IMG/VR virus record: IMGVR_UViG_3300036715_001763
Coordinates: 1 to 28,159 of that record
From: a virus
DNA: 28,159 bases
Reading direction: 5' to 3' (one strand)
In this document: in pieces, positions 4,113 to 24,254 of the stretch
Layout: every line of letters starts with the position of its first letter
Position numbering within the stretch: position 1 is the first letter of the stretch
The notes under the pieces: generated by a model
The model's input: only the letters and a program-made list of their open reading frames with translations
Databases searched by the model: none
What the model was told of the DNA's origin: nothing
Made by a program: the position numbers and the translations under genes

Positions 4113-5031
4113 AGTTAGACTTATTATGTTTTTTAGAATTTATGAATCTTTTTGTAATACAAAGATTATTTATATCTGCTATTATATGTGGTGATATACC
4201 TTCTTTAAATCCTTGAAAAACACTAATTTTATGATCAATTGTTGGATAATTTCCATGTAAATAATGAAATTCTTTATAATTTTCTTTTATATACGTTTTG
4301 TCATAAAAATCATAACCATCCCAATTATTTAATAATTCTTTTTTATTATATCTGGTCAGTTTATCAACTTTTACTCTATATGTTTTATATTCATTAGTTT
4401 CAAAATCACGTCCTGTTGATAAAAACATCTTTATCATTTGATTTTTATTCATTAGATGATGTATAAATCCATAGTTTTTTAAACTTGTCAATTCACTTTT
4501 CTTCTTGAAATCATCTGATAATACATAATATTCAACACCATGTCTTTTCAACATTGTATTTTTCCTTTTCTCTTTATGAAATTCAGAACTTGATATATTT
4601 TCAACTCCATATCTTTCTAAAATTGTAATTTTAACATTTTGTTTAAATGTATCAAGTTTTGATGGATAATCAACCCCATATTTATTAAGATTAGTATTTT
4701 TACACTTTTCTTTTGATTCATTAGTTTTTGAGTAGAAATCAACCCCATATTTTTGTAAATTGGTTTCTTTTATTTTACCTGTTGAACATTTACCTTTACA
4801 AGAATAATATCCTCTTATTTTACAAGAACGCAGATATTCTTTATATGATATTTTTCTTTCATTATCACATACATCACATTTAACATCAATTATTTGATGA
4901 GATCCTTTTGATAAGTCAATAGTTTTAATATAGATAATTTCATCACACTTTTCAAAAAAATATCCTAATTCTTTAAGTATTTTGTAATTTTTTGTATTTA
5001 TTTTTATTTCAATAAATTCATTTAGTATCAT
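4102..5031 (-). CDS. HNH homing endonuclease with KYGVD repeats
   Basis: This 309-residue protein has three parts. An N-terminal zinc-ribbon-like segment contains CDVCDNE and further Cys residues (about residues 50-85). At least four short repeats of the type LxKYGVDxxSK (about residues 90-180) are typical of DNA-binding linkers in phage homing endonucleases. A C-terminal HNH-like site follows: D266-H267 in YPTIDHKIS, N289 and N298-S-K-K. The N-terminus is paralogous to the truncated protein at 23865-24254 (both start MIL and share KGSH...KCDVC). It lies on the minus strand downstream of the gp25-like gene and an HTH relic, separated from that relic by a 12-bp hairpin. The frame appears intact, so it may be active. 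Confidence 0.75.
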   Translation of the reverse strand: MILNEFIEIKINTKNYKILKELGYFFEKCDEIIYIKTIDLSKGSHQIIDVKCDVCDNERKISYKEYLRSCKIRGYYSCKGKCSTGKIKETNLQKYGVDFYSKTNESKEKCKNTNLNKYGVDYPSKLDTFKQNVKITILERYGVENISSSEFHKEKRKNTMLKRHGVEYYVLSDDFKKKSELTSLKNYGFIHHLMNKNQMIKMFLSTGRDFETNEYKTYRVKVDKLTRYNKKELLNNWDGYDFYDKTYIKENYKEFHYLHGNYPTIDHKISVFQGFKEGISPHIIADINNLCITKRFINSKKHNKSNFTL

Positions 5032-5037
5032 AATTAC

Positions 5038-5071
5038 AGAGATTTTTTATTATATATATTAAAAAATCTCT
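5038..5071 (-). terminator. 12-bp perfect hairpin between HTH relic and endonuclease gene
   Basis: AGAGATTTTTTA and TAAAAAATCTCT form a perfect inverted repeat around a 10-base AT loop. It sits just after the stop of the 66-residue frame and just before the start of the endonuclease gene. The stem is mostly A-T, so termination may be weak. It may instead mark the boundary of an insertion. Confidence 0.4.
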
Positions 5072-5270
5072 ACTCACTTTTATAAATTCTTTCAAAAAGT
5101 TCAAATATATTATTACTATTTTCTTTGAAACAAAATTCATGAAGTCTTTTTTCTGGAAACTTACCGTGTCTCCAGCCTGATGTAACAGAACTGACAACTC
5201 CAAAATATTCTTCTAATTTTTGGTTATGTAGTCTATTTATGTAAAATTCTATAAAGTAAATATCTATCAT
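5070..5270 (-). pseudogene. HTH-domain remnant of a homing endonuclease
   Basis: This 66-residue frame starts MIDIYFIEFYINR and continues KLEEYFGVVSSVTSGWRHG, a helix-turn-helix pattern (FGVxxSVxSGWR) common in endonuclease accessory regions. It aligns with the first 60-odd residues of the decayed HNH gene at 6656-7494 (MIDIFFIEFYINR...KLEEYF...VNKSVASGWR). The zinc-ribbon and HNH parts are missing; a different endonuclease (4102-5031) follows instead. It is probably a truncated relic, although the short frame itself is open and could still encode a DNA-binding peptide. Confidence 0.6.
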
Positions 5271-5299
5271 ATCACTTTTATGAAATATTAGTAATTTGT

Positions 5300-5680
5300 T
5301 TATGTTATAGTTGCATAAACTTCATATCCATTAATTGTAAAATTAATTTCCATATACTCTTGATAATTTTCTGGATCATCATAAAAATTTACAACTAACT
5401 CATAGTTCATACTATCAATCTCTGGTATATAATCTGCAATTTGTGCCATTAGTTCACCTTGAACCGACTCTGATGATAGTTTTGTTTCATGTAATAGTAA
5501 TGTAAGATCACCACCAAAGTTAGGCTCACCTAATACTTCTCCTTTATTTGTGAATAGTATCATTTCATACTTTTGTATAATAACCTTTACTACATCATCT
5601 TCTATTAGTTCTAATGGTATATAGTCAGGATGTCCTGGATAGTGAATATAAAAATCTATAAAGTTAAAGTTACTTGCCAT
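5300..5680 (-). CDS. 25: gp25-like baseplate wedge protein
   Basis: This 126-residue protein matches the T4 gp25 / phage W-type baseplate wedge family. The key block is KGEVLGEPNFGGDLTLLL (residues 46-63), equivalent to the family signature in which a conserved G-E-R/V and an N/D-P-x-F-G-x-D-L motif form the wedge core. The length is close to T4 gp25 (132 residues). In the virion it would join the inner baseplate wedge and help start sheath assembly; that role is from family knowledge. The start is the ATG at 5680, preceded on its strand by TATATAAATT, close to a T4 late box. It is divergent from the ADP-ribosyltransferase-like gene and is followed downstream only by mobile-gene debris. Confidence 0.8.
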   Translation of the reverse strand: MASNFNFIDFYIHYPGHPDYIPLELIEDDVVKVIIQKYEMILFTNKGEVLGEPNFGGDLTLLLHETKLSSESVQGELMAQIADYIPEIDSMNYELVVNFYDDPENYQEYMEINFTINGYEVYATIT

Positions 5681-5701
5681 AATTTATATATAAAAATTTT
5701 A

Positions 5702-5733
5702 TATATACATTATGAAATATATACATTATGAAA
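5702..5733 (+). repeat. 16-base tandem repeat carrying promoter-like motif and duplicate start
   Basis: TATATACATTATGAAA occurs twice in a row (5702-5717, 5718-5733). Each copy contains a TATATAC box directly followed by an ATG. The first ATG (5712) opens a 12-codon frame that ends quickly; the second (5728) starts the long gene. The duplication therefore creates a decoy or upstream mini-frame. Confidence 0.7.
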
Positions 5734-6645
5734 TATATGAAAACATATGAGTTTTTCTCATCAGGATTTGGTAATTCATCAATAAGATTTTCAAGTTTAG
5801 GTAGTTTTATTACTTGGGCTGAGAAAAGATATAAAGAAGAAGAATATACAGATGAAGAATTTCAAGAAATTATTTCTATGTTAGAAAATGAATGTAAACA
5901 ATTTCTTGATGAAGTAAAAGAAGGTAAAGTAGGTCCTATTTTTAGAGGTGCAAAAAATGTTGATGATACTTATACAAAAGGTATTGGTGTTAAAGGTTCT
6001 AGAATTGATAGAGCACCTCTTGATACTAGAAAGGATGTGTCAACAATTTTAGATAATTGTTTTGAAGAAAAATTTGGACTTAAATTAAGAAGTAGTGGTG
6101 TTTTTGCTTCTAAACTACCAACAGTTACAAGTGATTATGGTAGACCTTATTTATTTTTCCCAATTGGTGATTATGAATACTTTTGGAATCCAGATGTAAA
6201 AGATTTATATGGTGATATTGAAGGAGAACCTTGGTACTATTATAATGAAAGTGATTGGGAATGGCAATATGGTCCTGGTAATAATGGTGATTGGTGTTAT
6301 GATGGACTTGAGTATGATAATGATATTATAACTGCAGTTAAGAGAGTTAAAGAAGATAATGTAGAATTGTCAAATAAGTCATTTGAATATGTTCAAAAAC
6401 TTTTATATTGGGAACCTGCCTGTAGTCTTGAGGATTATATGGAAGAAGCACATAAAGAATTACAAGAAAGATTAGAGAATATAGTATATGGATATGTTAA
6501 TAATCAAATGGATAAGATAGTTGACCAAGAAATAACATTTGTCTGTGATAAATACTATTTAGTTGATCCTGCTTTTTATGTTAAGTATTTAGAATACTTA
6601 AATGATAAAAACTTAGATGAATATAAAAAAAATAACCCAGATTAA
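5728..6645 (+). CDS. Putative ADP-ribosyltransferase-like protein, candidate packaged protein
   Basis: This is a 305-residue protein. It starts MKYMKTYEFFSSGFG; from the internal Met (5737) the sequence MKTYEFF is strikingly like the T4 internal-protein leader MKTYQEF, so translation might also begin there. An Arg-centred motif (GPIFRGA, R73), a Ser block (RSSGVFAS, residues 121-128) and a late EITFVCDKYYLVDP segment (E268) follow the R-S-E order of arginine-type mono-ADP-ribosyltransferases such as T4 Alt and ModA. The stretch YLFFPIGDYEYFWNPDVKDL is distinctive but I cannot assign it. If correct, it would be an Alt-like enzyme injected with the DNA to modify host proteins. Fold assignment by eye is weak. 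The stop codon lies inside the loop of a bidirectional terminator. Confidence 0.45.
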   Translation: MKYMKTYEFFSSGFGNSSIRFSSLGSFITWAEKRYKEEEYTDEEFQEIISMLENECKQFLDEVKEGKVGPIFRGAKNVDDTYTKGIGVKGSRIDRAPLDTRKDVSTILDNCFEEKFGLKLRSSGVFASKLPTVTSDYGRPYLFFPIGDYEYFWNPDVKDLYGDIEGEPWYYYNESDWEWQYGPGNNGDWCYDGLEYDNDIITAVKRVKEDNVELSNKSFEYVQKLLYWEPACSLEDYMEEAHKELQERLENIVYGYVNNQMDKIVDQEITFVCDKYYLVDPAFYVKYLEYLNDKNLDEYKKNNPD

Positions 6646-6657
6646 ACTGGGTTTTTT
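6634..6657 (+). terminator. Bidirectional intrinsic terminator
   Basis: AACCCAG and CTGGGTT pair around the loop ATTAAA, followed by a T-run on the plus strand. The opposite strand reads the same stem followed by ATTTTTTTT. It lies between the convergent gene ending at 6645 and the decayed HNH gene. The TAA stop of the plus-strand gene is in the loop. Confidence 0.85.
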
Positions 6658-7494
6658 AACCTATATATTTATTACCTTTTGACAAATTATCTATTACCCA
6701 AAGTGGTTGAAAATTTGTATAGTGATTTAGAATATATACTTCTTCTTTACTTCATATGATATTGGAATTATATGGTCAAGATGCCATTTTCCATGATTTG
6801 ATAAGGTCATTCCATCTTTGAATTTTGATTCTATATATATTCTAAACTCTTCATATGAACATCCTAATATACTATTTGTTTTTTTATCTTTAAAAAAACC
6901 AAGAGTTCTAAATGATTTTGATATTCTACTTCTTATTGATATTTTAAGTTTATAAACAGAATCAATTTTACAACGATTATATGTGTATTTATTTCTACAA
7001 GTATTACAACTTGAATGTAATTTGTCCAATTTAGAATTATCAGTAGTAAATAATAATCTACATTTTACTTCAAGACATTTAGAGCATATCTTTTTTGTTG
7101 GATCATTTATTTGTTCCTTTAGTAAAGAGAGTTTTATTAATTTACCATCTAAATCTTTATTATCTTGTTGGTATTCTCTCATTTTAATTAAAAGTGAATC
7201 TCTATTTTCACAATAATACTTTCAGGATTTGTTGTTATAATATTCTTTATTTTCTAAATAATTATTTTTTCCACAATTTCTACACTCTGACCTAAAGCCA
7301 TCTTTGACTCTTTTTTTAATTAATTCATAAACATCTAAAGTTCCTTCTCTAAACAAAAATTCCTTCATTCTCCTATCTGGAAATTTAGATAATCTCCAAC
7401 CTGATGCAACAGATTTATTAACCTAAAAATATTCTTCAAGTTTCTTACTATATTTTCTATTTATATAGAACTCTATGAAAAATATATCTATCAT
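6656..7494 (-). pseudogene. Decayed HTH plus HNH homing endonuclease
   Basis: Read from the ATG at 7494, which overlaps the clamp-loader stop (ATGA), one frame runs through an HTH segment, a Cys pair (SECRNCGKN), another Cys4 ribbon (CSKCLEVK...CNTCRN) and an HNH core ([11 protein letters not shown]). It is broken by an in-frame TAG after residue 23 (7425-7423) and a TGA after residue 90 (7224-7222). A one-base frameshift also occurs in an AAG run near 6730. After the shift the frame resumes with the expected HNH tail ([14 protein letters not shown]) and stops at 6656. Undamaged it would be about 280 residues. A 151-residue frame (6727-7182) remains open but lacks both ends. The stops are of two kinds, and other genes here end normally, so decay is more likely than recoding. 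Confidence 0.8.
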
Positions 7495-8456
7495 GATGAT
7501 AATATATTTCTTATTTTACCTATACAACTCATACCTAATATAATTGGATCAATTGCACTATCTAATTTAGGTGTAAACTCAGTTACTACATAACTTGTCT
7601 CAAATAATTTAGATATGTCTTCTCTTTTCTCATTAAAGGCCCACTCAACAAATGGTTTACCCAAAAGAGTTAACATTGAGTGTATCTTCTCTGCACCAAA
7701 GTTAGACATTAAGAAGTGATAGATTTGTTCATAGTCTAAATCATCATATAAGCTTTTGTATAAGTCTAATTTGACTTTGTTTGATATATTACTTGCACCA
7801 CTACTTAATGTACCGGTTTCTAAATAACCTTGAATTTCAACCATTACAGACCTGAAATCTGGAAACTTCTTATTTATAATTGAAATTAAATCTTCTTTAG
7901 GTATTTCACCACCTTCATTAGGTAGAACTGTGTTAGTAATCTTTTTATAGATTTCTTGTTTTAAGAATTTCTCTTCTTCTAATCCTTGAACATCAAAGTC
8001 AATCAATTTAATTCTTGACTTTAATCCATCAGATATTTTATTTATGTGATTGGTTGTTATGATAAATCTAACATTCTTATTATACTTCTCAATAAATGCT
8101 TTAAATGCATCTTGGAAGTTTGTAGAAACTCTTTCAAACTCATCTAAGAATACATACTTTACATCTGAGTTCACATCCATTATTGATGAGAATTTACAAA
8201 AGTCATCAATCTGAGTTCTAAGAACATCAATAGAAGTATCAAAAGAACAATTAAGTTCTAAGAATGCTGTTTCTTTTGAGTATTTACCTATAAGTATTCT
8301 TGCTAAACTGGTTTTACCAGTTCCATAGTGACCATGAAAGATATAGTGTTGAGTGACACCGTCTTTGAATTGTTCTCTTATTCTTGGTAGTAGGATAACA
8401 TCTTCCATATTTTTTGGTCGATATTTTTCCCACAATAATAATTTATTTACTGACAT
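7491..8456 (-). CDS. 44: gp44-like sliding-clamp loader ATPase subunit
   Basis: This 321-residue AAA+ protein matches T4 gp44 in length and motif order. It starts with LLLWEKYRPKNMEDVILL, typical of clamp loaders. Then come Walker A GHYGTGKTS (42-50), Walker B VFLDE (102-106), sensor-1 TTN (134-136) and the arginine-finger motif KSRIK (S147-R148). The later NFPDFRSVMVEIQGY segment matches NFPDFRKTIGELDSY of gp44. It would load the gp45-type clamp at primer ends during phage DNA replication. A small-subunit gp62 gene, which follows gp44 in T4, is not seen here; instead a decayed HNH gene starts at its stop codon. It is divergent from the endonuclease gene at 8513, with TATAAATT upstream of its own start. 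Confidence 0.9.
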   Translation of the reverse strand: MSVNKLLLWEKYRPKNMEDVILLPRIREQFKDGVTQHYIFHGHYGTGKTSLARILIGKYSKETAFLELNCSFDTSIDVLRTQIDDFCKFSSIMDVNSDVKYVFLDEFERVSTNFQDAFKAFIEKYNKNVRFIITTNHINKISDGLKSRIKLIDFDVQGLEEEKFLKQEIYKKITNTVLPNEGGEIPKEDLISIINKKFPDFRSVMVEIQGYLETGTLSSGASNISNKVKLDLYKSLYDDLDYEQIYHFLMSNFGAEKIHSMLTLLGKPFVEWAFNEKREDISKLFETSYVVTEFTPKLDSAIDPIILGMSCIGKIRNILSS

Positions 8457-8497
8457 ATTTCTAAATTTAGAATTTATATGATGTATAGAAGTGAAAG

Positions 8498-8515
8498 TTT
8501 AATATATACTTTATG
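8498..8515 (+). promoter_or_regulatory. Promoter-like block abutting endonuclease start
   Basis: TTTAATATATACTTTATG ends in the start codon of the broken endonuclease. The identical 18 bases occur at 15458-15475. If TATATACT acts as a -10/late box, transcription would begin at or next to the ATG, giving an almost leaderless mRNA. Confidence 0.5.
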
Positions 8516-9494
8516 TCTAAAAGATTAACAACTCAAGAATTTATAGAAAAATCTATCTCAAAACATGGAGATAAATATGATTATACCTTAGTTGATTATA
8601 AGAATGCTAAGACTAAAATTATATTGACCTGTAAAAATAATCATAAATTTGAAATAAATTCACAAAAACACCTATTAGGTGGTGGATGTAGAAAATGTTT
8701 TACAGATAGTAGAAGATTGGGTATAAATACATTTATTGAGAAATCAATAAACAAACATGGAGATATTTATGATTATTCAAAGACTAAATACATAAATGAT
8801 ATTACAGAAGTTCTTATAACTTGTATAGAACATGGAGAATTTTACCAACTACCTTCTGTACATTGTAGAAGTGGATGTTAAAATGAGAGATAAAGTTAAA
8901 ATAATTTGTAATGAACATAATATAGAGTTTCTACAAACACCAGAAAAACATTTGTCCTCTAAAACGGGCGGGTGTCCAAAATGTAATACAATTGGTAAAG
9001 GTAAACTAACAAACTTACAATTTATTGAAAAATCAAATAATATACATAATAACAAATATGACTACTCAATTACACAATATATTATGTCAAGAGATAAGGT
9101 TAAAATTATTTGTGATAAACATGATATATTTGAAATGACACCAAATGCACATTTGAGAGTAGAGGGTTGTAGAATATGTAATAGAAATGGTGGGATTATG
9201 GAAAATATTTGGTTAGATACATTTAATATACCCAAAGATTATAGACAATATAAAATAGATAATTTCTATGTTGATGGTATAGATTTGGATAATAAAATAA
9301 TTTATGAGTTTAATGGTGATTTTTGGCATGGTAATCCTAATATATATAATTCTGTTGATATTAATAGAGTTAATCAAATAAGTTATGGTGAATTATATAA
9401 AAGAACAATAGAAAGAGAAAAATACTTAGAAATATTAGGTTATAAAATAGTCTCTATTTGGGAGTCTGATTTTAAAAAAATATTAATTAGATAA
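8513..9494 (+). pseudogene. Broken zinc-ribbon-repeat homing endonuclease with Vsr-like nuclease
   Basis: The first frame (8513-8881) holds two repeats of the pattern F-I-E-K-S..KH.DKYDY...I.C..H..F....H...GC..C. It ends just after the GC of the second repeat. The rest continues in another frame (open from 8832, homologous from about 8884) with MRDKVKIICNEHN, a half repeat, then a full repeat, and a C-terminal nuclease domain IDLDNKIIYEFNGDFWHGNP (PD-(D/E)XK, Vsr-like) ending at 9494. About half a repeat is missing at the break, so recombination between repeats plus a frameshift destroyed the gene. Compare the intact relatives at 13635-15272 and 15473-16390. The stop TAA overlaps the ATG of the next gene by one base. 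Confidence 0.8.
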
Positions 9495-12772: not shown

Positions 12773-13137
12773 TTGGATTGAAGATAAATCTGAAAAAAGT
12801 AGGTTTGAAATAGAATAGATATTTTATAAAAACATCATTTATTTCAATTGTTGAAAGAATTAGAATAGTTAAATATACTGAATCAGAAACTAGTTTGATT
12901 TACTCAAGAGTGGTTGGAATGAATGAAAAATATATGTTCAGAGATACACTTTTGTGTAATTATATTACATTAATTTAGAAAAAATTAGATGACATTTTTT
13001 CTAAAAAAGAAGTATTGGATGATGATAATTCAATTATATCATCATGGTTTATAAAGAATAAATATATAAATACCATTGTAAATACACATTTTATATCTTA
13101 TATTAGAGATAATAAATTAAAAGAATTACTTTCCTAA
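12765..13137 (+). pseudogene. Broken small gene downstream of the sigma operon
   Basis: The ATG at 12765 starts MFNWIEDKSEKSRF and hits TAG at 12816. After a one-base shift the frame continues with a protein-like sequence (FIKTSFISIVERIRIVKYTE, then SLIYSRVVGMNEKYMFRDT). A second TAG at 12976 interrupts it before LDDIFSKKEVLDDDNSIISS and a final TAA at 13135. The undamaged product would be about 120 residues. The family is unknown. Two lesions in a short gene indicate real decay rather than a single sequencing error. Its last 12 bases overlap the convergent gp4-like gene. Confidence 0.6.
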
Positions 13138-13654
13138 GTGTTTTTCAGTTATTATAATAAATTCATAACCCTTTTTATTACACCACTCAATCATAGTTTC
13201 CCATTTAGTCTTGTTCTTGTATGCAAGCTTGAGTTCATACTCAAAACTTTTCAATTTCTTCAAATTATTCTCAGGTACATTTGCAAATTTACCTTCATTT
13301 AATTGTATAACCATATCATATTCTTTTTGTGGTTTAACCTCAACTACTACATCTTTTATTGAATCATCAGGTTGTCTTATTCTATAATAGAAATCAGGAT
13401 AGTACCTATGTCTTTTTATTTTCATATCTCCATTATCAAAGTGTGTCATCTCATATGGTATTTCAAGATTTTCACATCCCCAAATTAATATCTTTTCGTT
13501 ATTATCTAACCAAAACATCATTTTTTTTTTTTTTTTCGAGTCCGCTTCTGTAGTAGAGCCCCCCTTCATTATTTAATTTAAATACTTTTCCTTTATTTAT
13601 GGGTATATAATTTCCTTGATGATATTTTTTATTATTAGGTTTTGAGTTTATCAT
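13126..13654 (-). CDS. 4: gp4-like head completion protein, frame interrupted at a 16-A tract
   Basis: T4 gp4 (gp50/gp64-type) is a head-completion protein with an endonuclease-like fold that prepares heads for tail joining. The matching parts are WLDNNEKILIWGCENLEIPY, RHRYYPDFYYRI, a VVVEVKPQKE strand carrying the E-x-K, and a C-terminal KTKWETMIEWCNKKGYEFII. The longest open frame starts at 13569 (MKGGSTTEADSKKKKK), which looks wrong. A different frame from the ATG at 13654 gives MINSKPNN...GNYIPINKGK...EGGLYYRSGLEKKKK, the expected N-terminus. The two frames meet at 16 consecutive A residues (minus strand, 13536-13521); 15 would join them. The gene may be rescued by slippage, or the tract may be miscounted. 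The 5-prime end is a second copy of the fragment at 15285-15386. Confidence 0.75.
13521..13536 (-). repeat. 16-base poly-A tract (coding strand) inside the gp4-like gene
   Basis: There are sixteen T on the plus strand, read as A16 in the coding direction between CTCG and TGATG. It is exactly where the N-terminal and C-terminal halves of the gp4 frame part. Confidence 0.95.
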
Positions 13655-15272
13655 ATAATAGTTTATTTTTTAATATATTTTCTATATTTTTTAATTCTTT
13701 GTAACTTATTCTTATTAGTTTTATATTATTCATAATACAATATCTACTTTTAATATTATCTGACTTTTTAATAAAATCAAATGTTTCATCACCTCCAAAA
13801 AATGGAATAGATTTAAAATGGTGTTTTCCATCATATTCTATACAAGTATTAGTTTCTGTTAAATAAAAATCAAATGGTAATTTATTTTTGTTAATACAAT
13901 CACTAAACTTATATTGATGTATATATTTAATTTTATTATCCTCTAAAAAATTTTTAATGAAAATCTCACCTCTACTTTTAGTAAAGCAAAGAGGACATCC
14001 AGATCCTCTAAGATGACTATCTGCATTTTGTGAAAATAAACCATGTTTATTACAATTTATTTTTACTTTATCAAGAGTTTTGATTATAATATCATTATCA
14101 ATTAAATATTGATATTTATTATTATGAACTTTATGTGCCTTTTTAATAAAATCAATTTCATTCATTGATTTTTCTTCTAATTGACACAACTGGCATCCTT
14201 GTCCATTTTTGTGATTCCATGCATTTATACTAAACTCTCCATGTTTATTACATATCACTATTATATTTTCTTTAACTCCATTAAAAATAGTTTTATCATA
14301 ATCATATATATTATTATGTTTTATAGCACATAATTTAATAAATTCAAGATTAGAATATTTAAAATTTCCTTTATTTTTACCACTACCAGTACCACCACCA
14401 CTACCACCAATTGAACAATGTTTACAACCACCTCCACTTGAATGATAGTATGGTAATTGTTCAAAATCCCCATGTTTAGGACAGTTTATGATAACTTTAT
14501 TCTTATGTCCGGTATATATAGTTTTGTCATAATTATAATAATATGAATGTTTTTTTTGTGATTCTATAATAAATAACTTAGTATCTTTTTTAGCATTTCC
14601 TATGGTATTCATATAACTACATTCAGGACAACCTTGTCCATTTTTATGATGATGTGGTGTTTGCTCAAATATACCGTGTATTTTGCATACAATTTTAACT
14701 TTTTTATTAACCGCAACATATTCTAACAAAGAGTAATCATACTTCTTCATGTGTAGTTTTTCTACAATTTCAATAAAATTACTTTGTTTACTTTGTAATT
14801 TTGTAGTTTTTATGGTATTAAGACATTCTATTTTATTTAAAATTCTTTTATTTCTATTTATTAATATTCTCTCATTGTTACATTTTATACAACCACTTCC
14901 ATTTAGATGTTCATTTGGATTTAGATAAAATTCACCATGTATCTTACATATTATTGTTAATTTTGTTTTCCAGTTAACATATATTGATTTTGTGTATTCA
15001 TATTTATTATAGTGTTTGATATTTGCCTTTTTTATAAAGTCTTTAATATTAGATAAGCAACTTTTTTTTGAACTCTCACGGCCACAAGTAGGACAACCTC
15101 TTTTATTGCCTATTAAATTACCCACTAGAATACCAAATTCACCATGTTCTCTACATACTAAAATTATATTTTTTTTATTATGTATATAATTTACTTTATC
15201 TAGAATGTATTTATCATTATGAATTGATATTATCCGTTCTTTTATTTCGTCATTAGTTACTTTTTTACTCAT
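13635..15272 (-). CDS. Zinc-ribbon-repeat homing endonuclease inserted in the gp4-like gene
   Basis: This is a 545-residue protein. About six tandem modules of 60-75 residues each end in the pattern I.C..HG.F....H..G.GC..C, which should bind zinc and contact DNA. They are followed by a Vsr-like PD-(D/E)XK nuclease: KLPFDFYLTETNTCIEYDGK (D468, E479, K483), then FFGGDETF and KLIRISYKEL. A Gly/Ser-rich linker (GGSGGGTGSGKNKG) separates modules four and five. The start ATG at 15272 is directly preceded by TAATATATATACTT. Its last 20 bases overlap the start of the reconstructed gp4 gene (13654). Just upstream lies a fragment of a second gp4 5-prime end. The frame is intact, so it may be an active mobile endonuclease. 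Confidence 0.85.
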   Translation of the reverse strand: MSKKVTNDEIKERIISIHNDKYILDKVNYIHNKKNIILVCREHGEFGILVGNLIGNKRGCPTCGRESSKKSCLSNIKDFIKKANIKHYNKYEYTKSIYVNWKTKLTIICKIHGEFYLNPNEHLNGSGCIKCNNERILINRNKRILNKIECLNTIKTTKLQSKQSNFIEIVEKLHMKKYDYSLLEYVAVNKKVKIVCKIHGIFEQTPHHHKNGQGCPECSYMNTIGNAKKDTKLFIIESQKKHSYYYNYDKTIYTGHKNKVIINCPKHGDFEQLPYYHSSGGGCKHCSIGGSGGGTGSGKNKGNFKYSNLEFIKLCAIKHNNIYDYDKTIFNGVKENIIVICNKHGEFSINAWNHKNGQGCQLCQLEEKSMNEIDFIKKAHKVHNNKYQYLIDNDIIIKTLDKVKINCNKHGLFSQNADSHLRGSGCPLCFTKSRGEIFIKNFLEDNKIKYIHQYKFSDCINKNKLPFDFYLTETNTCIEYDGKHHFKSIPFFGGDETFDFIKKSDNIKSRYCIMNNIKLIRISYKELKNIENILKNKLLYDKLKT

Positions 15273-15287
15273 AAAGTATATATATTA
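15270..15287 (-). promoter_or_regulatory. Promoter-like block abutting endonuclease start
   Basis: On the minus strand TAATATATATACTTTATG directly follows the last homologous codons of the gp4 5-prime fragment (GGTGGTGTG) and ends in the endonuclease ATG. The gp4 homology stops exactly where this block begins, so the block belongs to the inserted cassette. Confidence 0.55.
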
Positions 15288-15386
15288 CACACCACCCTCT
15301 GTGTTTAATTTTAAGACCTTATCTTTATTCTGAGGTATAAAGTTACCACCATGAAATTTTGAGTTGTTAGGTTTAGAATTTATCAT
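15285..15386 (-). pseudogene. 4: Stranded 5-prime end of the gp4-like gene
   Basis: A 33-residue frame starts MINSKPNNSKFHGGNF and ends EGGV then TAA, and aligns with residues 1-33 of the frame at 13654 (MINSKPNNKKYHQGNY...EGGL). About 24 of 33 residues are identical by eye. It lacks the following YYRSG and the nuclease part. It lies immediately upstream of the endonuclease gene, on the same strand. It is best read as the original beginning of gp4, cut off when the cassette brought in a diverged replacement. Confidence 0.85.
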
Positions 15387-15457
15387 TGTTCTGTTTGTTT
15401 ATTTTTATATATTATATTTTTATTATCTGTAAATAATTCATTACAGGGATGGAACAT

Positions 15458-15475
15458 TTTAATATATACTTTATG
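15458..15475 (+). promoter_or_regulatory. Promoter-like block abutting endonuclease start
   Basis: TTTAATATATACTTTATG, identical to 8498-8515, ends in the ATG at 15473. It shows that the upstream in-frame ATG at 15449 is probably not the start. Confidence 0.5.
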
Positions 15476-16390
15476 AAAAAGTTAACAAAAGAAGAATTTA
15501 TTGAAAGAAGTAATAAAATACATAAAAATTGTTATGATTATTCACTTGTAGAATATGAAAATGTTATGAAGAAAGTAATAATCATTTGTCATAAACATGG
15601 TAAATTTGAACAAACTCCATTAAATCACTTAAATGGTCATATTTGTAAAAAATGTTCAAGAGAGATAGTTGCTGTTAAACAGAGAAAAGATATTGAATTT
15701 ATAGAAAAGTCTAATATTAAATATAACAATAAATATGATTATTCACTTGTGGAATTTATAAATAGAACCACAAAAGTTAGAATAATATGTCCAATACATG
15801 GTGAGTTTTTATCAACACCCACTAATCATCTAAATAGAAATGGTTGTAGTAAATGTTCTAAATATGAACTTAGAAAAGATAATAAATTAAAATTTATAGA
15901 GAAGTCTAATTTTATACATAATGGAATATATGATTATTCACATGTAGAGTATATTTCTGATAAAGTTAAAGTTAAAATTGTGTGTAGTAAACATGGTGAG
16001 TTTGAACAACAACCAAATACACACTTAAATGGAGTTGGATGTCCAACTTGTAAAAGTAGTAAAGGTGAAATAAGAATACAGAATTATTTTATGAAAAATA
16101 ATATATACTTTATAAAAGAACATAGATTCAATGAATGTTTTTATAAGAAAAGTTTATCATTTGATTTTTACTTACCCAACCATAATATTTGTATAGAATT
16201 TGATGGAAAACAACATTTTAGACCTATTAATTTTTTTGGTGGTTATGAGAACTTTAAAAATACAATTGTTAGAGATACTATCAAAAATAAATTTTGTTTA
16301 GATAATAATATTAAAATAATAAGAATTCCTTATGATAAATATAAGGAAATAGAAAAAATACTTCAAGATGAATTATGGGAGAATTATTAG
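15473..16390 (+). CDS. Zinc-ribbon-repeat homing endonuclease with Vsr-like nuclease
   Basis: This is a 305-residue protein from the chosen start MKKLTKEEFIERS, which aligns with starts of the relatives (MSKRLTTQEFIEKS at 8513, MKKLTTDEFVKKC at 21412). An upstream in-frame ATG at 15449 would add eight residues encoded by the promoter-like block, so it was rejected. Three modules of the FIE+SN.IH..YDYS...C..HG.F...P..HL...C..C type precede a PD-(D/E)XK domain, FDFYLPNHNICIEFDGKQHF (D231, E242, K246), then FFGGYENF and KIIRIPYDKY. Its 3-prime end overlaps the next gene by 16 bases. The frame is intact and it may be active. Confidence 0.85.
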   Translation: MKKLTKEEFIERSNKIHKNCYDYSLVEYENVMKKVIIICHKHGKFEQTPLNHLNGHICKKCSREIVAVKQRKDIEFIEKSNIKYNNKYDYSLVEFINRTTKVRIICPIHGEFLSTPTNHLNRNGCSKCSKYELRKDNKLKFIEKSNFIHNGIYDYSHVEYISDKVKVKIVCSKHGEFEQQPNTHLNGVGCPTCKSSKGEIRIQNYFMKNNIYFIKEHRFNECFYKKSLSFDFYLPNHNICIEFDGKQHFRPINFFGGYENFKNTIVRDTIKNKFCLDNNIKIIRIPYDKYKEIEKILQDELWENY

Positions 16391-17070
16391 ATAGAGTGAA
16401 ACTTAATTTACTTGTTAATGGAGATGGAATAGTTGAAAATTTTAAGAATAATTCATTATTCTTTTATGAAAAATACAATCAAAGTACACCAGATGTTTTA
16501 GCAATAAGCATTACTGATATTTATCCAGGTGGATTTTATTTTTTTCATTATTTGGATGATAGTAATTGGTTAAAATTTGCACCAGTATTTGTTGCAGACT
16601 TTAAGAAGTTTGATGATAAAGTAATTTTATTTGCTGTTAATTTCAATTTTATTCCAATGGAGATAAGAGTGATGTTATTTGATAAGTTTATTTTACCAGA
16701 AGACTTTGAAAAGAATAGTTTATTAAAAGTTGATTATAATGGTATGTATAATGAGATTAGAAAATTAGGATTTGAATATGCTTTAATGGAGTTCAATGCA
16801 ATTCAATTGGTTAGAGTTCATAGAATTAGTTTAGAGTTATTACCAAGGTTTTTATATTCACAACATCCTATAAATAAATATGATCCTAACAAGTTAAATG
16901 AAATATGGGTTGCTAAAATTGGTAAAAGAGATGAAAGACATAAAGAATTAATGACATCTGCATTAAATGACTTTTATGATGTTAATAGTGAGATTTCGGA
17001 AAAGTATAATGTGATGAAGGATCATATTAAGAGATTACAGACAAGTCTTACCAAGTATGGGAATAGGTAG
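16375..17070 (+). CDS. Conserved-looking phage protein, possibly structural
   Basis: This is a 231-residue protein that I do not recognise. The centre is rich in aromatic residues and looks like a compact beta domain (PGGFYFFHYLDDSNWLKFAP, then ILFAVNFNFIPMEIRVMLFD). It is followed by a helical part (YNEIRKLGFEYALMEFNAIQ) and a charged C-terminal helix. There is no signal peptide or catalytic motif. It lies between the gp4-like and portal genes, so a neck or head-tail role is conceivable, but this is context only. The start lies inside the end of the endonuclease gene, as at the portal gene, suggesting that the endonuclease arrived at its 5-prime end. Confidence 0.65.
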   Translation: MGELLDRVKLNLLVNGDGIVENFKNNSLFFYEKYNQSTPDVLAISITDIYPGGFYFFHYLDDSNWLKFAPVFVADFKKFDDKVILFAVNFNFIPMEIRVMLFDKFILPEDFEKNSLLKVDYNGMYNEIRKLGFEYALMEFNAIQLVRVHRISLELLPRFLYSQHPINKYDPNKLNEIWVAKIGKRDERHKELMTSALNDFYDVNSEISEKYNVMKDHIKRLQTSLTKYGNR

Positions 17071-17459: not shown

Positions 17460-17594
17460 AAAGCAAAAGAAGTATTAGAAAAATATAACATAACAAGAAG
17501 AACTCTTAGTAACTGGGTTAAAAAAGGTGTAATTGAAGTTGAACTAACTCCAACAGGTAGATATATTTATATTGAAAAAAAGAAAGAAATATAA
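17457..17594 (+). CDS. Small MerR/IS607-type helix-turn-helix protein
   Basis: This is a 45-residue protein that reads MKAKEVLEKYNITRRTLSNW in its first half. It is a helix-turn-helix of the MerR/excisionase type (E-V-L-x-x-Y-x-I-T-x-R-T-L-x-x-W-V-K-x-G), followed by a wing-like TPTGRYIYIE. This is the same layout as the DNA-binding N-terminus of IS607-family recombinases, but no recombinase domain follows. Its stop overlaps the start of the HNH endonuclease (TAATG), so translation is coupled. It probably supplies DNA recognition or autoregulation for the endonuclease cassette. It shares the promoter-like block used by the other endonuclease cassettes. Confidence 0.7.
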   Translation: MKAKEVLEKYNITRRTLSNWVKKGVIEVELTPTGRYIYIEKKKEI

Positions 17595-18274
17595 TGAAAA
17601 GTTGTAGTAAATGTAAAATTGAAAAGGAATTTACTCTTTTTCATAAAAGTTCAAGAAATAAATGTGGATATAGGTCACAATGTATTTCTTGTGAAAATGA
17701 ATATAAGGAGGTTAATAAGGATAAACGTAGAGAATATGATAAGAATAGAATACGTGATAAAGAAAAAAGTATTAACTATTATATTTTAAATAAAGAAAGA
17801 ATTATATCAAAGAGTAAAGAATATTATGAAAATAATAAAGAATCTAAATTAGAATATCAAAAGGAATATAATAAAAACAATAAGGAAAGTAGAAACTTGT
17901 ATCTAAATGAGAGAAGAAAAAATGATCCTTTATTTAAGCTAATAACAAATGTTAGGAATTTAATATATAATTCATTCTATTATAATGGATATTCTAAAAA
18001 TTCAAAGACAGAAGAACTATTAGGTTGTTCTTTTGAAGAACTAAAAGAATATTTAGAATCTAAGTTTGAACCTTGGATGAACTGGGATAATAGAGGATTG
18101 TATAATGGAGAATTAAATTATGGTTGGGATATTGACCATATAATACCTCTATCAAGTGTAGATAAAGAAGATGACATAATAAAATTAAATCATTATGTAA
18201 ATTTACAACCACTCTGTAGTAAAGTAAACAGAAATATAAAGAAAGATAATTTAGAACATGGCGAGTTACAATAA
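17594..18274 (+). CDS. HNH homing endonuclease upstream of the portal gene
   Basis: This is a 226-residue protein. The N-terminal zinc ribbon has C4, C7, C30 and C33. A long, very charged helix follows (residues 40-110, many Lys/Glu/Tyr/Asn), then TEELLGCSFEELKEYLESKF, a segment common in phage HNH enzymes. The HNH core is YGWDIDHIIPLSS (D181, H182), then LNHYVNLQPLCSKVN (N203). The frame is intact. The start is coupled to the HTH gene, and the end overlaps the portal gene by 17 bases: its last codons LEHGELQ are read from the portal start region. A near-identical C-terminal relic exists at 3317-3511. Confidence 0.85.
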   Translation: MKSCSKCKIEKEFTLFHKSSRNKCGYRSQCISCENEYKEVNKDKRREYDKNRIRDKEKSINYYILNKERIISKSKEYYENNKESKLEYQKEYNKNNKESRNLYLNERRKNDPLFKLITNVRNLIYNSFYYNGYSKNSKTEELLGCSFEELKEYLESKFEPWMNWDNRGLYNGELNYGWDIDHIIPLSSVDKEDDIIKLNHYVNLQPLCSKVNRNIKKDNLEHGELQ

Positions 18275-20006
18275 TTACGACACTAATAGTAATACAGCAA
18301 ACTTTGGGTCTGCAGGACAATCCGCAGTTGAGAATAAAGGATTGTTTAATAGAATACTTAGAACTTTATCATCTTATGGTATGAACTATGATGATATGAT
18401 TATTAGAAATCAAGTGGGAATTGGAATTAATGAAGATCCATATGCAGCACGAGGAAATTCGATGTACGACTTCTTTTCAAGTCGAGCAGTTGCATCTGTA
18501 TTAAACAGAAAATCAATACCTTATTTAGATAAAGCTTATGCAGATAAAAGAAGAATTTTAAGAGAGTATTCTATTAAAGATGAGATTAGAGACTTTGTGA
18601 GTTCAATTGCTGATGAGTGTATAGTTTATAATGATGAGAGAGATTTCTGTTCACCAGTGGCTTTACCAGTAGAATATTCAACAGAGATACAAGATAAGTA
18701 TCAAGAGTATTTTGAATCTATTTACAATAAGTTTGGTTTCTCTGATAACATTACTGCCTGGAATATGATGAAAGACTTTTTAGTTGATGGTTATGTTGCA
18801 CTTGAGATTATATTTGATGATAAAAAGAAGAATATTATTAGTTTCAATAGATTAAGACCAGAAACTTTAGTTCCTGCTTATGAACCTTCAATTGGTCACT
18901 TATGGATTCAGTTTCCTGAGGATCCACAATTAAGAAGAATATTTTTAGATTCACAGATAGTTTATGTTTCATATTCAACTCAAAATGAATTTTCAGAGAC
19001 ATCTTATGTAGAGGGTTTGATTAAACCTTACAATCAATTAAAAATATTACAACAAACAAGAATAATGTTTAATATTATTAATGCAACTATTTATCAGAAG
19101 TTTACTGTTCCAATTAAAGGTATGTCAAGACAAAGAGCAGAAGAACAAATAGGACAATTAATACATGATTATTCAGAAGAAGTAGAATGGGATGACTCAT
19201 TGGGAACTTTAACTATTAATGGTTCTAAACACTTACCTTATAACAAACAAATCTGGTTTCCTGAGGGAGATGCAGGTACTCCAAATATGACATTAGAATC
19301 TCCACAAGGTCATAACTTAAATGATGATACAATGTTGGATTGGTTCTTTAAAGCATTAAAGAGAGCATCTAAAATACCAATGTCAAGATTTGAAAGTGAT
19401 AATGGTGGTGGTAACTTAGTTACTGATGCAGCTGAAATGACAAGAGATGAGATTAAGTTCCATAACTTTATTAGTAGATTAAGATCTAACTTTAAAGAAT
19501 TAATTGTTAAACCATTGAGATTACAAATGTTAATTGAGTTTCCTGAGTTAAAGGATGATGATTTTTTTACAAATGCTGTTGATATTACATTCTTTACAAA
19601 TCAAGTATTTGAAGAATGGAAAAAGATAAACAATTTAGAAAAGAAAGCAGGTATAGTTGGTACTTTACTTGGTGTTATGAATGGTGAGAAACCATACTTT
19701 CACATTGAATGGATTATGGATAATGTATTCAAACTTACCCCAGAAGAAAAAGCTGAGAATGCTAAGTACTGGGCAATGGATGTTTATAACCAAGCAGCTG
19801 GAGCTACTGGTGAACCTGGTTCTCCATCAGAAGGTGGTGGTGGAGGTGGTTTTGGTGGTTCCGGTGAAAGTGGTGAAATGCCAGGTGGAGGTGGACAAGC
19901 AGCACCTCAAGCAGCACCAGAAGCTCCAGCACAAGGTGGTGGACAAGCAGCACCGGAAGCTCCTCCTGCTCCTGACGCTGGTGGAAGTTCTGAATTCGAG
20001 TTTTAA
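18258..20006 (+). CDS. 20: gp20-like portal protein with low-complexity tail
   Basis: This is a 582-residue portal protein (T4 gp20 is 524). Portal features seen are the helical wing and stem region with VSYSTQNEFSETSYVEG, followed by PYNQLKILQQTRIMFNIINA. Next comes IWFPEGDAGTPNMTLESP, and then HNLNDDTMLDWFFKALKRAS leading to KIPMSRF. T4 gp20 has the same order (a W-L-P-R motif, a TLPGG-type loop, then KLYRALNIPMSRL). It forms the dodecameric DNA gate at the head vertex and starts prohead assembly. The last 70 residues (513-582) are a Gly/Pro/Ala/Gln-rich tail ending SSEFEF, unusual beside gp20. The start ATG lies inside the HNH gene. Confidence 0.9.
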   Translation: MASYNNYDTNSNTANFGSAGQSAVENKGLFNRILRTLSSYGMNYDDMIIRNQVGIGINEDPYAARGNSMYDFFSSRAVASVLNRKSIPYLDKAYADKRRILREYSIKDEIRDFVSSIADECIVYNDERDFCSPVALPVEYSTEIQDKYQEYFESIYNKFGFSDNITAWNMMKDFLVDGYVALEIIFDDKKKNIISFNRLRPETLVPAYEPSIGHLWIQFPEDPQLRRIFLDSQIVYVSYSTQNEFSETSYVEGLIKPYNQLKILQQTRIMFNIINATIYQKFTVPIKGMSRQRAEEQIGQLIHDYSEEVEWDDSLGTLTINGSKHLPYNKQIWFPEGDAGTPNMTLESPQGHNLNDDTMLDWFFKALKRASKIPMSRFESDNGGGNLVTDAAEMTRDEIKFHNFISRLRSNFKELIVKPLRLQMLIEFPELKDDDFFTNAVDITFFTNQVFEEWKKINNLEKKAGIVGTLLGVMNGEKPYFHIEWIMDNVFKLTPEEKAENAKYWAMDVYNQAAGATGEPGSPSEGGGGGGFGGSGESGEMPGGGGQAAPQAAPEAPAQGGGQAAPEAPPAPDAGGSSEFEF

Positions 20007-21411: not shown

Positions 21412-22348
21412 ATGAAAAAGTTGACAACAGATGAATTTGTAAAAAAATGTATTGAAGTACATGGATATAGGTATGATTATAGTATATCAATATATAATGG
21501 TACAAATATTAAGATGAATATAATATGTGAAAAACATGGTGTATTCTTGCAAAGAACATCTGCACACTTACTAGGTCAGGGTTGTATGGAATGTAGATTG
21601 GATAATAGAAGGACTGGTATAGATAAATTTTTAGAAAGATGTTTGGAATTACATAGTAATAAATATGATTATTCATTAGTTAGTGAATATAAAAATAGTT
21701 CAACAAAAGTTAGAGTTATATGTAGAAACCATGGTGTATTTGAAGTAACACCCGATCATCATCTTAATAAAAAACAAGGTTGTCCAGAGTGTAAAAAATT
21801 AGGATTAGATAAATTTATAGAAAAATCAAATATTAAACATAACAGACTTTATAAGAAAATCAAATGAAATACATAATAATAAATATTTATATTCTGATAA
21901 TATAGAATTTAAATCTAATAAAGATAAGATTGAAATAACTTGTAAAGAACATGGGATATTCTTACAAAAAATAAATGCACATTTAAGTGGACAGGGTTGT
22001 CCTAATTGTAATGAATCCAAAGGAGAGAAATTTATAAAAAAATATTTAATAGAAAATGATATAAGTTTTATCCAACAATATAAATTCAAGGATTGTAAAG
22101 ATAAACAACTACTACCATTTGATTTTTATTTAACAGATTTGAATATTTGTATAGAGTTTAATGGTAGACAACATTATGAACCAATATCATATTTTGGTGG
22201 AATAGATAGTTTTAAATCTCAAATTAAAAGAGATAATATTAAAAAGAAATATTGTGTAGATAATATTATTTATTTTTTTATAATAAAGTATGTTGAAAAT
22301 ATAAAGGATAGATTGGATGAAATATTAAAAATAGAACAGACTTTATAA
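21412..22348 (+). pseudogene. Broken zinc-ribbon-repeat homing endonuclease inside RNase R
   Basis: The first frame (21412-21867) has two complete modules (KYDYS..., C..HGVF..., GC.EC) and the start of a third, FIEKSNIKHNR. There the frame shifts and another module start follows at once (FIRKSNEIHNNKYLYSDN, from about 21847). The second frame runs on through C..HGIF...GCPNC, a Vsr-like nuclease (LLPFDFYLTDLNICIEFNGR, then YFGGIDSF) and stops at 22348. Two module starts in tandem show that repeat recombination removed most of one module and broke the frame. It is on the strand opposite to RNase R and interrupts that gene. Confidence 0.8.
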
Positions 22349-23872
22349 ATTTATTGGGTATCCACCATTTCCAAGTGCTACTGATAATAGACGATGAACA
22401 ATATTATCCGAGTAACGTCGGATGGGGGATGTAAAGTGACAATAGTCTTCAAACCCAAGGCCATAGTGTCCAACATTATCTGTTGTATAATATGCCTTTT
22501 GTTGACTTCTAACTATTAAAGTATTGATAAGATTTTCCTCAGGATTTCCTTTAACATCTTTTAACAGACTATTAATACTTGATTTTATATTTAACTCATT
22601 TATATCAAAGTTATATCCTAATTTATCACATATATTTTTTATTTCTGTAATCTTCTCAATATTAGGTAAACCATGAGATCTATTTACACAAAACTTAATT
22701 TTAGTCTTTAATTCTTTAGCAACTAATTTATTTGCAAGTAACATATATTCTTCAATAAGTTTATTTGCATCTTTTTGTGTTTTGAAATAAACACCAGTTG
22801 GTTTCATTGTAGTTGGATCCAATTGAAATCTTACTTCAATTCCACCCATTTCAATAGAACCATCTTCTATTCTTTGCTTTCTCATTTTTTTAGCAGTTGT
22901 ATCTAATAGAAGTATTTCAGTTTTGAAATCTCCATCTTTACCTTCAATTATTTCTTGAGCTTCTTCATAAGAATATCTTCTATCTGAATGTATAATAGTT
23001 TTACCAAACCATTTATTCAATACTTCTCCTTCTTTATTTAAAGTAACTACAACTGAGAAACAAAGTTTATCTTCATTAGGTCTTAATGAACATACACCAT
23101 TACTCAATCTCTCAGGTAACATTGGTACACATCTATCAACTAAGTAAACAGATGTTGCTCTTTTAATAGCTTCTTCATCAATTATACCACATTCTTTAAC
23201 ATAATGTGAAACATCCGCGATATGTATACCTACTTCTACTGTATTATCATCAAGTATATTAACCGAAAGAGCGTCGTCAAAATCTTTGGCATCAACAGGG
23301 TCAATGGTAAAGGTTGTAATTGCTCTCATATCTCTTCTTTTTTCAATTTCTTCTTCTGATATTTCAAAAGGTATTAATTCTGCATCAGCTTCAACCATTA
23401 GAGGGAAACTGTTAGGTAATCCATATTCATACATAATTGAGTTCATTTCGGTATTGTTATCTCCAGATTCTCCTAAGATTTCAATAATTTTACCTTTAGG
23501 TGATTTAGAACCAGGTTCCCAGTTTGAAAACTCAACCAAAACTTTTTGGTCATTCTTTGCATCATGGTTACCTTTAATATAAAAATCTACTGGAATTTTT
23601 TGACTGTCTGGTATTACAAAGGTTAGGTCTTTGTTTAAGTGTACTTTACCAACAAATTGTGTACGGAATCTTTCTAATACTTCTATTACTTCCGCTTCTA
23701 CTTTATTATTTTTAATAATAATCTTAACTTTAACTTTATCTGAGTTAAGTGCATTCAAAGTATTTTTCTTATAGATAAAAATACTTTTATCCTCTATTCT
23801 AATGGATGCATTTCCACTATTTGAGAATTCTATAGTACCATCATAGATACTATCTTCTTTTAATTTATTCAT
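22343..23872 (-). CDS. rnr: Catalytic part of split RNase R (exoribonuclease)
   Basis: This 509-residue protein has two cold-shock-like OB regions (about 1-135) and an RNB catalytic domain. The metal-binding motif IDPVDAKDFDDALSV (D191, D194, D197, D199, D200) is complete, and HFTSPIRRYSD (479-489) supplies the catalytic Arg region. RNase R degrades RNA 3-prime to 5-prime. The protein stops right after YPINL, where full-length relatives continue into the linker and S1 domain now found at 20863-21222. All catalytic residues are present, so activity without S1, or with it in trans, is possible. The start overlaps the end of a truncated endonuclease gene by 8 bases. Phage-encoded RNase R is uncommon among T4-type phages to my knowledge. 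Confidence 0.9.
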   Translation of the reverse strand: MNKLKEDSIYDGTIEFSNSGNASIRIEDKSIFIYKKNTLNALNSDKVKVKIIIKNNKVEAEVIEVLERFRTQFVGKVHLNKDLTFVIPDSQKIPVDFYIKGNHDAKNDQKVLVEFSNWEPGSKSPKGKIIEILGESGDNNTEMNSIMYEYGLPNSFPLMVEADAELIPFEISEEEIEKRRDMRAITTFTIDPVDAKDFDDALSVNILDDNTVEVGIHIADVSHYVKECGIIDEEAIKRATSVYLVDRCVPMLPERLSNGVCSLRPNEDKLCFSVVVTLNKEGEVLNKWFGKTIIHSDRRYSYEEAQEIIEGKDGDFKTEILLLDTTAKKMRKQRIEDGSIEMGGIEVRFQLDPTTMKPTGVYFKTQKDANKLIEEYMLLANKLVAKELKTKIKFCVNRSHGLPNIEKITEIKNICDKLGYNFDINELNIKSSINSLLKDVKGNPEENLINTLIVRSQQKAYYTTDNVGHYGLGFEDYCHFTSPIRRYSDNIVHRLLSVALGNGGYPINL

Positions 23873-24254
23873 TCTTTTTTATTTTTTTGGAGATATTATC
23901 CACTCCATATTTTTTAATTAATGTTTTTTTCATCTTATCTAAAACTCCTTTATTCTGAATAGGATAATCTACTCCAAAGTTTTTTCTAAGTGTTTCCTTC
24001 CTCTTACTCTCTGAACACTTTCTACAATAATACTCTCCCCAAACATTATCATATTTAAGGTAATTCTTATAGATTACATCTTTCTCAACCCCACAAACAT
24101 CACATTTACATTTAATTTTATAATGAGAACCTTTTGGTAACAGATCAACTGGTATCACAATTTCTTCTCCTATATATACATCATATCCTAATGAATCATA
24201 ATAGTTGTAATTTGACTCAATTATTTTAATATTTATCTCTCTTGAAAGGATCAT
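23865..24254 (-). pseudogene. Truncated KYGVD-repeat endonuclease, nuclease domain missing
   Basis: A 129-residue frame starts MILSREINIKIIESNYNYYD and contains a zinc-ribbon part (KCKCDVCGVEKDV...YYCRKC) and two repeats (FGVDYPIQ, YGVDNISK). It aligns with the first part of the protein at 4102-5031 (MILNEF..., KGSH...KCDVC, KYGVDYPSK). The HNH or other nuclease end is absent. The frame ends KKIKKNE by running into the RNase R start (8-base overlap). Its start overlaps the stop of the upstream endonuclease (ATGA). It may be a relic, or a short DNA-binding protein that is still made. Confidence 0.65.

What the first reader, a model, noticed from the sequence alone, without database searches (positions are those of the whole stretch)
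13126..15386. Endonuclease cassette that splits gp4 and brings its own replacement 5-prime end
The gp4-like gene has two 5-prime ends. One (15285-15386) is a 33-residue stub ending exactly where the endonuclease promoter block begins. The other (from 13654) overlaps the endonuclease stop and runs on into the rest of gp4. The two N-termini share about 24 of 33 residues but differ clearly in DNA. The simplest reading is that a homing endonuclease moved together with a diverged copy of the target gene's first codons. It cut the resident gene, displaced its start and restored the gene as a hybrid whose new 5-prime end should resist cleavage. An analogous arrangement (endonuclease plus duplicated gene terminus making a hybrid gene) is known from fungal mitochondrial atp6; I know of no such case for a phage head gene.
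Basis: partly seen in the sequence, partly recalled or inferred. Interest (0 to 1): 0.85.

Follow-up and report, generated by a model that had tools for sequence, protein, structure and literature searches.

The report
Phage gene-end-swapping homing endonuclease cassette
In a T4-like uncultured phage, a DNA-cutting selfish gene appears to have cut an essential head gene and pasted itself in together with a foreign, altered front part of that gene; the same enzyme-plus-altered-front unit recurs in other phages, where the altered part carries an unusually long run of A's that often breaks the reading frame.

Summary
Stub (15386-15285), endonuclease (15272-13635) and second gp4 start (13654) are real. 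The stub matches the phage's own lineage at 31 of 31 informative sites. The second copy is foreign for about its first 100 codons and then switches back to the local lineage, so gp4 is a true donor/recipient hybrid. None of about 120 related gp4 loci without this endonuclease has two starts.

(1) Copy 2 is not in frame with the rest of gp4. An A16 run (13521-13536; next longest run in the window is 8) shifts the frame.
(2) It recurs. Further contigs (L138/L211, L209, L210/L213) carry the same endonuclease clade with an identical 20-nt overlap onto gp4, and A12 or A14 at the same codon. Gp4 without it has at most A8. Two diverged A14 genotypes keep dN/dS below 0.1.
(3) The nearest known system is the yeast WHO/FBA1 homing element, here in mirror image, rather than fungal atp6 alone.

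Best reading: an EDxHD homing endonuclease that travels with a cleavage-resistant gp4 5' end; gp4 is probably read through the A-run by slippage. Cleavage, resistance and slippage are inferred. A second phage cassette of this design, at a PTH2 gene, was found in L151.

The parts
15285..15386 (-). gp4 stub: resident 5' end, 33 codons, ends at the inferred cut point (GGTGGTGTGTA|)
   Evidence: 96-99% DNA identity to local-lineage gp4 (L003-L006, L021, L027); 31/31 informative sites local
15387..15412 (-). resident gp4 leader
   Evidence: aligned with local relatives together with the stub at 92-94%
15273..15284 (-). start of the HEG unit: AT-rich block before the HEG ATG; AATATATACTTTATG is shared with two other HEG ORFs of the window
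13635..15272 (-). HEG1: 545-aa endonuclease, DUF723/treble-clef repeats plus C-terminal EDxHD (Vsr-like) domain
   Evidence: Pfam/PHROG, alignment, Foldseek to I-Bth0305I prob 1.00
13638..13982 (-). HEG1 catalytic domain (residues 431-545): E436, D468, E479, H485, D505, K508
13346..13654 (-). foreign 5' ~100 codons of gp4 (donor, L001/L002-like); first 20 nt overlap the HEG 3' end
13538..13564 (-). recoded, GC3-rich codons 31-39 (GGG GGG CTC TAC TAC AGA AGC GGA CTC), the part around and after the point where the stub ends
13521..13536 (-). A16 run; puts the 5' part out of frame with the gp4 body
13336..13357 (-). donor-to-resident switch inside gp4 (EVKPQKEY region)
   Evidence: informative-site scan; longest identity between parental types there 14 nt
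13126..13345 (-). resident 3' part of gp4
   Evidence: 37/43 informative sites local; local KFANVPE indel

Best explanation
HEG1 is a free-standing EDxHD homing endonuclease that travels as one unit with an altered 5' end of its target gene, gp4. It probably cuts HEG-free gp4 around codons 33-42, at the conserved GG-YY-RSxxE-KK stretch. Repair from the donor copied in the HEG plus the donor's gp4 5' end and rejoined resident gp4 about 200 nt further on, at codon ~103. The resident first 33 codons were left upstream of the HEG as a stub. The unit's gp4 5' end differs from target alleles by recoding at the cut region and by an expanded A-run, which would make it resistant. When the A-run length is out of frame, gp4 is probably still made because RNA polymerase slips on the run. 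Shown: anatomy, mosaic origin, recurrence, fixed HEG-gp4 junction, purifying selection. Inferred: cleavage, resistance, slippage.
For: The mosaic has two switches: stub local 31/31; copy 2 foreign 60/71 up to nt ~309, then local 37/43. Flanks on both sides are 88-95% local. The closest HEG relatives (L138, L209, L210/L213; 48-52% to HEG1, next best 40%) all sit directly upstream of gp4, and each overlaps its start by exactly 20 nt. All five viral contigs with G-A11+ before gp4's ATGxxxTGG have this HEG, while gp4 without it has at most A8 (the distant HEG-gp4 pair L164 has A11). HEG-linked gp4 5' ends share PINK(E/G)K (61 of 62 others have D) and a GC3 excess in the YYRS codons (p=1.2e-4). N-terminus versus body: window and L213 agree at 85% in the N-terminus with only 54% in the body, above all 117 comparable pairs. 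Grouping the HEG-linked gp4 is rejected for the body (AU p=1.4e-4) but not for the 5' end (p=0.20). L210/L213 also carry a short gp4 stub before the HEG. L138 vs L209, both A14 and out of frame, have dN/dS 0.09 and 0.03. A poly-A11 transcriptional rescue is documented elsewhere (PMC4256274).
Against: No cleavage or resistance was measured. L138 and L209 have no recognisable stub, so a stub is not obligatory. L001 has a donor-type gp4 in a local-like backbone without a HEG, so gp4 alleles also move, or lose HEGs, without it. Exact A-run lengths in metagenome assemblies may be off by one. Synonymous divergence in codons 31-39 is only modestly above that between HEG-free relatives (7 of 9 against 4-6 of 9).
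Confidence: 0.8

Rival explanations
1. Ordinary intronless homing: the HEG dragged its neighbour gene by co-conversion, and the stub is only a scar of an imperfect left-hand join with no role as homology arm.
For: Co-conversion of flanking genes by free-standing T4 HEGs is established (PMC2988022). L138/L209 and L035 have HEG-gp4 without a stub.
Against: Two lineages (window, L210/L213) keep a stub at the same side, and L151 shows stub-HEG-gene at another target. It differs from the best reading only in the role of the stub.
Confidence: 0.35
2. The A-run is mutational decay or a sequencing slip: gp4 copy 2 is either truly in frame (A15) or a dying gene.
For: Homopolymers of 11-16 are error-prone in PCR and short reads. 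L210/L213 (A12) are in frame.
Against: Identical run lengths come from separate samples (L138 and L211 both A14; L210 and L213 both A12). Long runs occur only beside this HEG clade or, in L164, another HEG. dN/dS is below 0.1 across two A14 genotypes. A systematic one-base error in the exact length cannot be excluded; the long run itself is secure.
Confidence: 0.3
3. gp4 was exchanged by ordinary homologous recombination and the HEG arrived separately.
For: L001 shows a donor-type gp4 without a HEG.
Against: The identical 20-nt HEG-gp4 junction and the shared gp4 5' allele class across lineages, and the stub ending where the HEG unit begins, point to joint transfer.
Confidence: 0.1
4. Assembly chimera of two strains.
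For: The source is a virus contig assembled from a metagenome (IMG/VR record).
Against: The parental types share at most 14 identical bases near the right switch, below usual k-mer sizes. The left junction has no shared repeat. The same HEG-gp4 junction is assembled in other contigs.
Confidence: 0.03
5. Simple tandem duplication of the gp4 5' end with later divergence.
For: The two N-termini are homologous.
Against: The two copies have different nearest relatives.
Confidence: 0.01

Closest known systems
Yeast WHO elements at FBA1 (PMC7282813)
   Same: Endonuclease beside its target gene; target gene is a donor/recipient hybrid; recipient fragment left on the far side of the HEG; donor allele resistant; mobile unit = HEG plus resistance-conferring gene end.
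   Different: WHO replaces the 3' end and is an intein-like/zinc-finger protein in yeast; here it is the 5' end, an EDxHD enzyme and a phage. Cleavage and resistance were shown there, not here. No A-run or frame break is described there in the full-length gene.
Fungal mitochondrial mobile ORFs in atp6/atp9/cox2/nad3 (Allomyces, Glomus; PMC3630166)
   Same: Endonuclease plus foreign gene end forms a hybrid; the displaced native end persists and matches close relatives.
   Different: C-terminal ends, mitochondrial, LAGLIDADG/GIY-YIG.
T4 intronless homing (SegF, SegG, MobE; PMC2988022)
   Same: Free-standing phage HEG near an essential gene, cutting a neighbour allele, with co-conversion.
   Different: No gene-end stub described; other nuclease families; cleavage sites usually hundreds of bp or more from the insertion.
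T4 mobA / gene 60 bypass (PMC5009743)
   Same: A non-coding, frame-breaking insert in the target gene beside a HEG, proposed to protect from cleavage, with the gene read by unusual decoding.
   Different: 50-nt bypass by the ribosome; here an A-run with inferred slippage.
I-Bth0305I (EDxHD family; PDB 3R3P)
   Same: Catalytic fold and residue pattern.
   Different: Full-length architecture with DUF723/treble-clef repeats and a gp4 target here; no activity data here.

Membership tests
EDxHD homing endonuclease | Vsr-like catalytic domain with E, D, H, D residues | tested here: met
   E436, D468, E479, H485 invariant in 6 homologs, D505 in 5 of 6; Foldseek to 3r3p_B probability 1.00, TMt 0.58, E=0.042
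EDxHD homing endonuclease | Site-specific cleavage and homing | not testable with these tools
   No enzymology
WHO-like gene-end-replacing homing element | Target gene is a hybrid of donor end and recipient remainder | tested here: met
   Informative-site scan
WHO-like gene-end-replacing homing element | Recipient fragment on the far side of the HEG | tested here: met
   33-codon local stub in the window; short stub in L210/L213; absent in L138/L209
WHO-like gene-end-replacing homing element | HEG and gene end inherited as a unit | tested here: met
   Same 20-nt overlap and 5' allele class across lineages; resistance itself not tested
WHO-like gene-end-replacing homing element | Allele-specific cleavage | not testable with these tools
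   Recoding and A-run only suggest it
WHO family proper | Intein-like endonuclease domain fused to zinc finger | tested here: not met
   HEG1 matches DUF723/DUF4379 and PHROG endonucleases and has an EDxHD fold; works like WHO, is not a WHO protein
Transcriptional-slippage gene | Run of about 9 or more A's at the frame break | tested here: met
   A16, A14, A11
Transcriptional-slippage gene | mRNAs of mixed length giving full-length protein | not testable with these tools
   No transcripts; dN/dS below 0.1 is indirect
T4 gp4 head completion protein | Family match | tested here: met
   PHROG 218 E=1e-22; 2266 phage records match the query

The most novel reading that the evidence does not exclude
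A phage homing cassette whose immunity lies in an A-run placed in the target gene: the run destroys the endonuclease site and also makes RNA polymerase slip, so the essential gp4 stays expressed whatever the run's frame. The run length then drifts freely (A11, A12, A14, A16). Such gene-end-swapping cassettes are a general but overlooked class of phage HEG (gp4 here, PTH2 in L151).
Probability: 0.4. Interest if true: 0.92.

Novelty: new variant of a known kind. Interest (0 to 1): 0.84.

Why it matters
Free-standing phage endonucleases are known to drag flanking DNA, but in the papers searched no phage case was found of an endonuclease that travels with a replacement, altered end of the essential gene it attacks and leaves the old end as a stub. 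If right, it brings the yeast WHO principle into phages with an unrelated enzyme family, explains mosaic structural genes, and offers a directly testable link between homing immunity and frame-breaking A-runs decoded by slippage, akin to the T4 mobA/gene 60 bypass case.

Tried and rejected
An exact pattern for the stub-HEG junction and for the recoded codons in viral contigs found no second copy. PDB sequence search of HEG1 gave nothing useful. The 340 bp after gp4 (12788-13125) had no protein match. The idea that the whole gp4 is foreign, suggested by overall identity, was rejected by binning and informative sites. My first GC3 scan included one ORF in the wrong frame (13126-13529); its hits were discarded and the point was retested by comparison with other gp4 genes. 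The A-run pattern in genome contigs gave one unrelated archaeal hit. HEG2, the HEG at 8513 and the HEG before gp20 show no comparable 5'-end replacement. L181/L194 hits in the duplication survey are HEG against HEG. L035 and L002 have a different HEG type upstream of gp4 and no long A-run.

Full report
WHAT IS THERE. The window is a 28-kb IMG/VR virus record of a T4-like phage (gp20 portal at 18258-20006, PF07230). On the minus strand lie a 33-codon gp4 stub (15386-15285), a 545-aa endonuclease ORF (15272-13635) and a second gp4 start at 13654. The stub and copy 2 share 24 of 33 residues and 69.7% of DNA. gp4 belongs to the T4 head-completion family (PHROG 218; TnsA-like N-terminal domain).

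After ...GGACTCG the DNA has 16 A's and then TGATGTTTTGG. Fifteen would be in frame. Copy 2's own frame stops after 50 codons; the body is read in another frame. A16 is the only run above 8 in the window.

ORIGIN OF THE TWO 5' ENDS. HEG-free relatives (L003-L006, L021, L027) match the window's flanks at 88-95%. At sites where they differ from the donor-like L002, the stub is local at 31 of 31. Copy 2 is donor-type at 60 of 71 up to nt ~309, then local at 37 of 43, including the local KFANVPE indel (permutation p<5e-5). So gp4 is a hybrid with about 100 donor codons and a resident 3' part. The parental types share at most 14 identical bases near the switch and the left junction has no shared repeat, so an assembly chimera is unlikely.

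RECURRENCE. The closest relative of HEG1 found in the viral contigs, L138 (52%), sits at the same place, between the same divergent gene and gp4, and its gp4 has A14 at the same codon, again out of frame. A pattern search of all viral contigs for G-A11+ before gp4's ATGxxxTGG returned five contigs, and all five have this HEG upstream (L209, L211, L212 with A14; L210, L213 with A12; L212 is the same contig as L138). L164, a more distant HEG-gp4 pair, has A11, also out of frame. Other gp4 genes have at most A8. The gp4-linked HEGs HEG1, L138, L209 and L210 are mutual best hits (48-95%, next 40%) and each overlaps gp4 by exactly 20 nt, so HEG and gp4 5' end probably share one ancestral junction. 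L211 is identical to L138 from another sample, and L213 to L210, so run lengths are reproduced between assemblies. Just upstream of the HEG, L210/L213 carry a short gp4 start (ATGATAAATTCCAAACCAAGTAA) after a gp4-like leader: a second, eroded stub. L138/L209 have none.

THE GP4 5' END TRAVELS WITH THE HEG. HEG-linked gp4 starts share PINK(E/G)K, where 61 of 62 others have D, and an excess of G/C-ending codons in exactly the GG-YY-RSxx stretch (difference to the codons before it 0.19 to 0.71, others -0.07 +/- 0.12; Mann-Whitney p=1.2e-4, though the five HEG-linked genes are only three lineages). Window and L213 have 85% identical N-termini but 54% identical bodies, above all 117 pairs of similar body identity. 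Trees: grouping the HEG-linked genes is rejected for the body (AU p=1.4e-4) and not rejected for the 5' end (p=0.20), which has few columns. Synonymous divergence alone is only modestly raised.

IS GP4 STILL FUNCTIONAL? L138 and L209 differ by about 10% in DNA and both carry A14 out of frame, yet dN/dS is 0.09 for the body and 0.03 for the 5' part. That fits a gene that is still expressed. Transcriptional slippage on 11 A's rescuing a broken gene is documented (PMC4256274), and long poly-A runs give 12-50% of transcripts with corrected frames in endosymbionts (PMC5009743). Slippage here is inferred, and a one-base error in the assembled run length cannot be excluded.

MECHANISM. HEG1's C-terminal domain has the EDxHD residues and the I-Bth0305I fold. 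The stub ends in codon 34, just before the conserved YYRSxxE codons, so cutting is inferred there. In the WHO model (PMC7282813) the cut gene is repaired from a donor with HEG plus resistant gene end, giving a hybrid gene and leaving the recipient's old end as a fragment; such a fragment serves as a homology arm. The window is the mirror image, with the 5' end replaced. The stub may be such an arm or only a scar.

HOW GENERAL? In a survey of 103 HEG ORFs, one further locus has a gene 5' end duplicated across the HEG: L151, where a PTH2 peptidyl-tRNA hydrolase gene follows the HEG and a diverged copy of its start precedes it (55 of 70 aligned bases identical; TAG read as Q).

NOVELTY. Gene-end replacement by a HEG is known in yeast and fungal mitochondria, and co-conversion in T4. 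I found no paper describing it in phages (open-access library only), nor an A-run tied to homing. I file it as a new variant of a known kind.

Noticed in passing
L151:2875-4586: A second stub-HEG-gene cassette in another phage: the 5' end of a PTH2 (peptidyl-tRNA hydrolase) gene is duplicated before a DUF723 HEG, in frame with it, and both copies carry an early TAG (TAG probably read as Q).
   Followed up: partly
window 15449-16390 (+) and L064:2013-2930: A related HEG (65% identical between the two) sits head to head at the same intergenic site and overlaps the start of the divergent gene 16375-17070; this short intergenic region is a hotspot invaded from both sides (also L035, L002).
   Followed up: partly
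window 12773-13125: About 340 bp between gp4 and the next gene, absent from all relatives held; holds a degenerate ORF (..KYTESETSLIYSRVVGMNEKYMF..) without any match in phage records.
   Followed up: partly
window 3317-9494, 17594-18274, 21412-25879: Many further HEGs or HEG fragments in 28 kb; several end over the start codon of the next gene (HNH HEG over gp20 at 18258; broken HEG over the gene at 9494).
   Followed up: partly
L001:3479-3997: Donor-type gp4 inside an otherwise local-like contig without HEG or stub, so gp4 alleles may be exchanged widely in this group.
   Followed up: no
window 5701-5731: Tandem pair of ATATATACATTATGA directly before ORF 5728; similar blocks precede several HEGs and may be a promoter motif of this phage group.
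   Followed up: no
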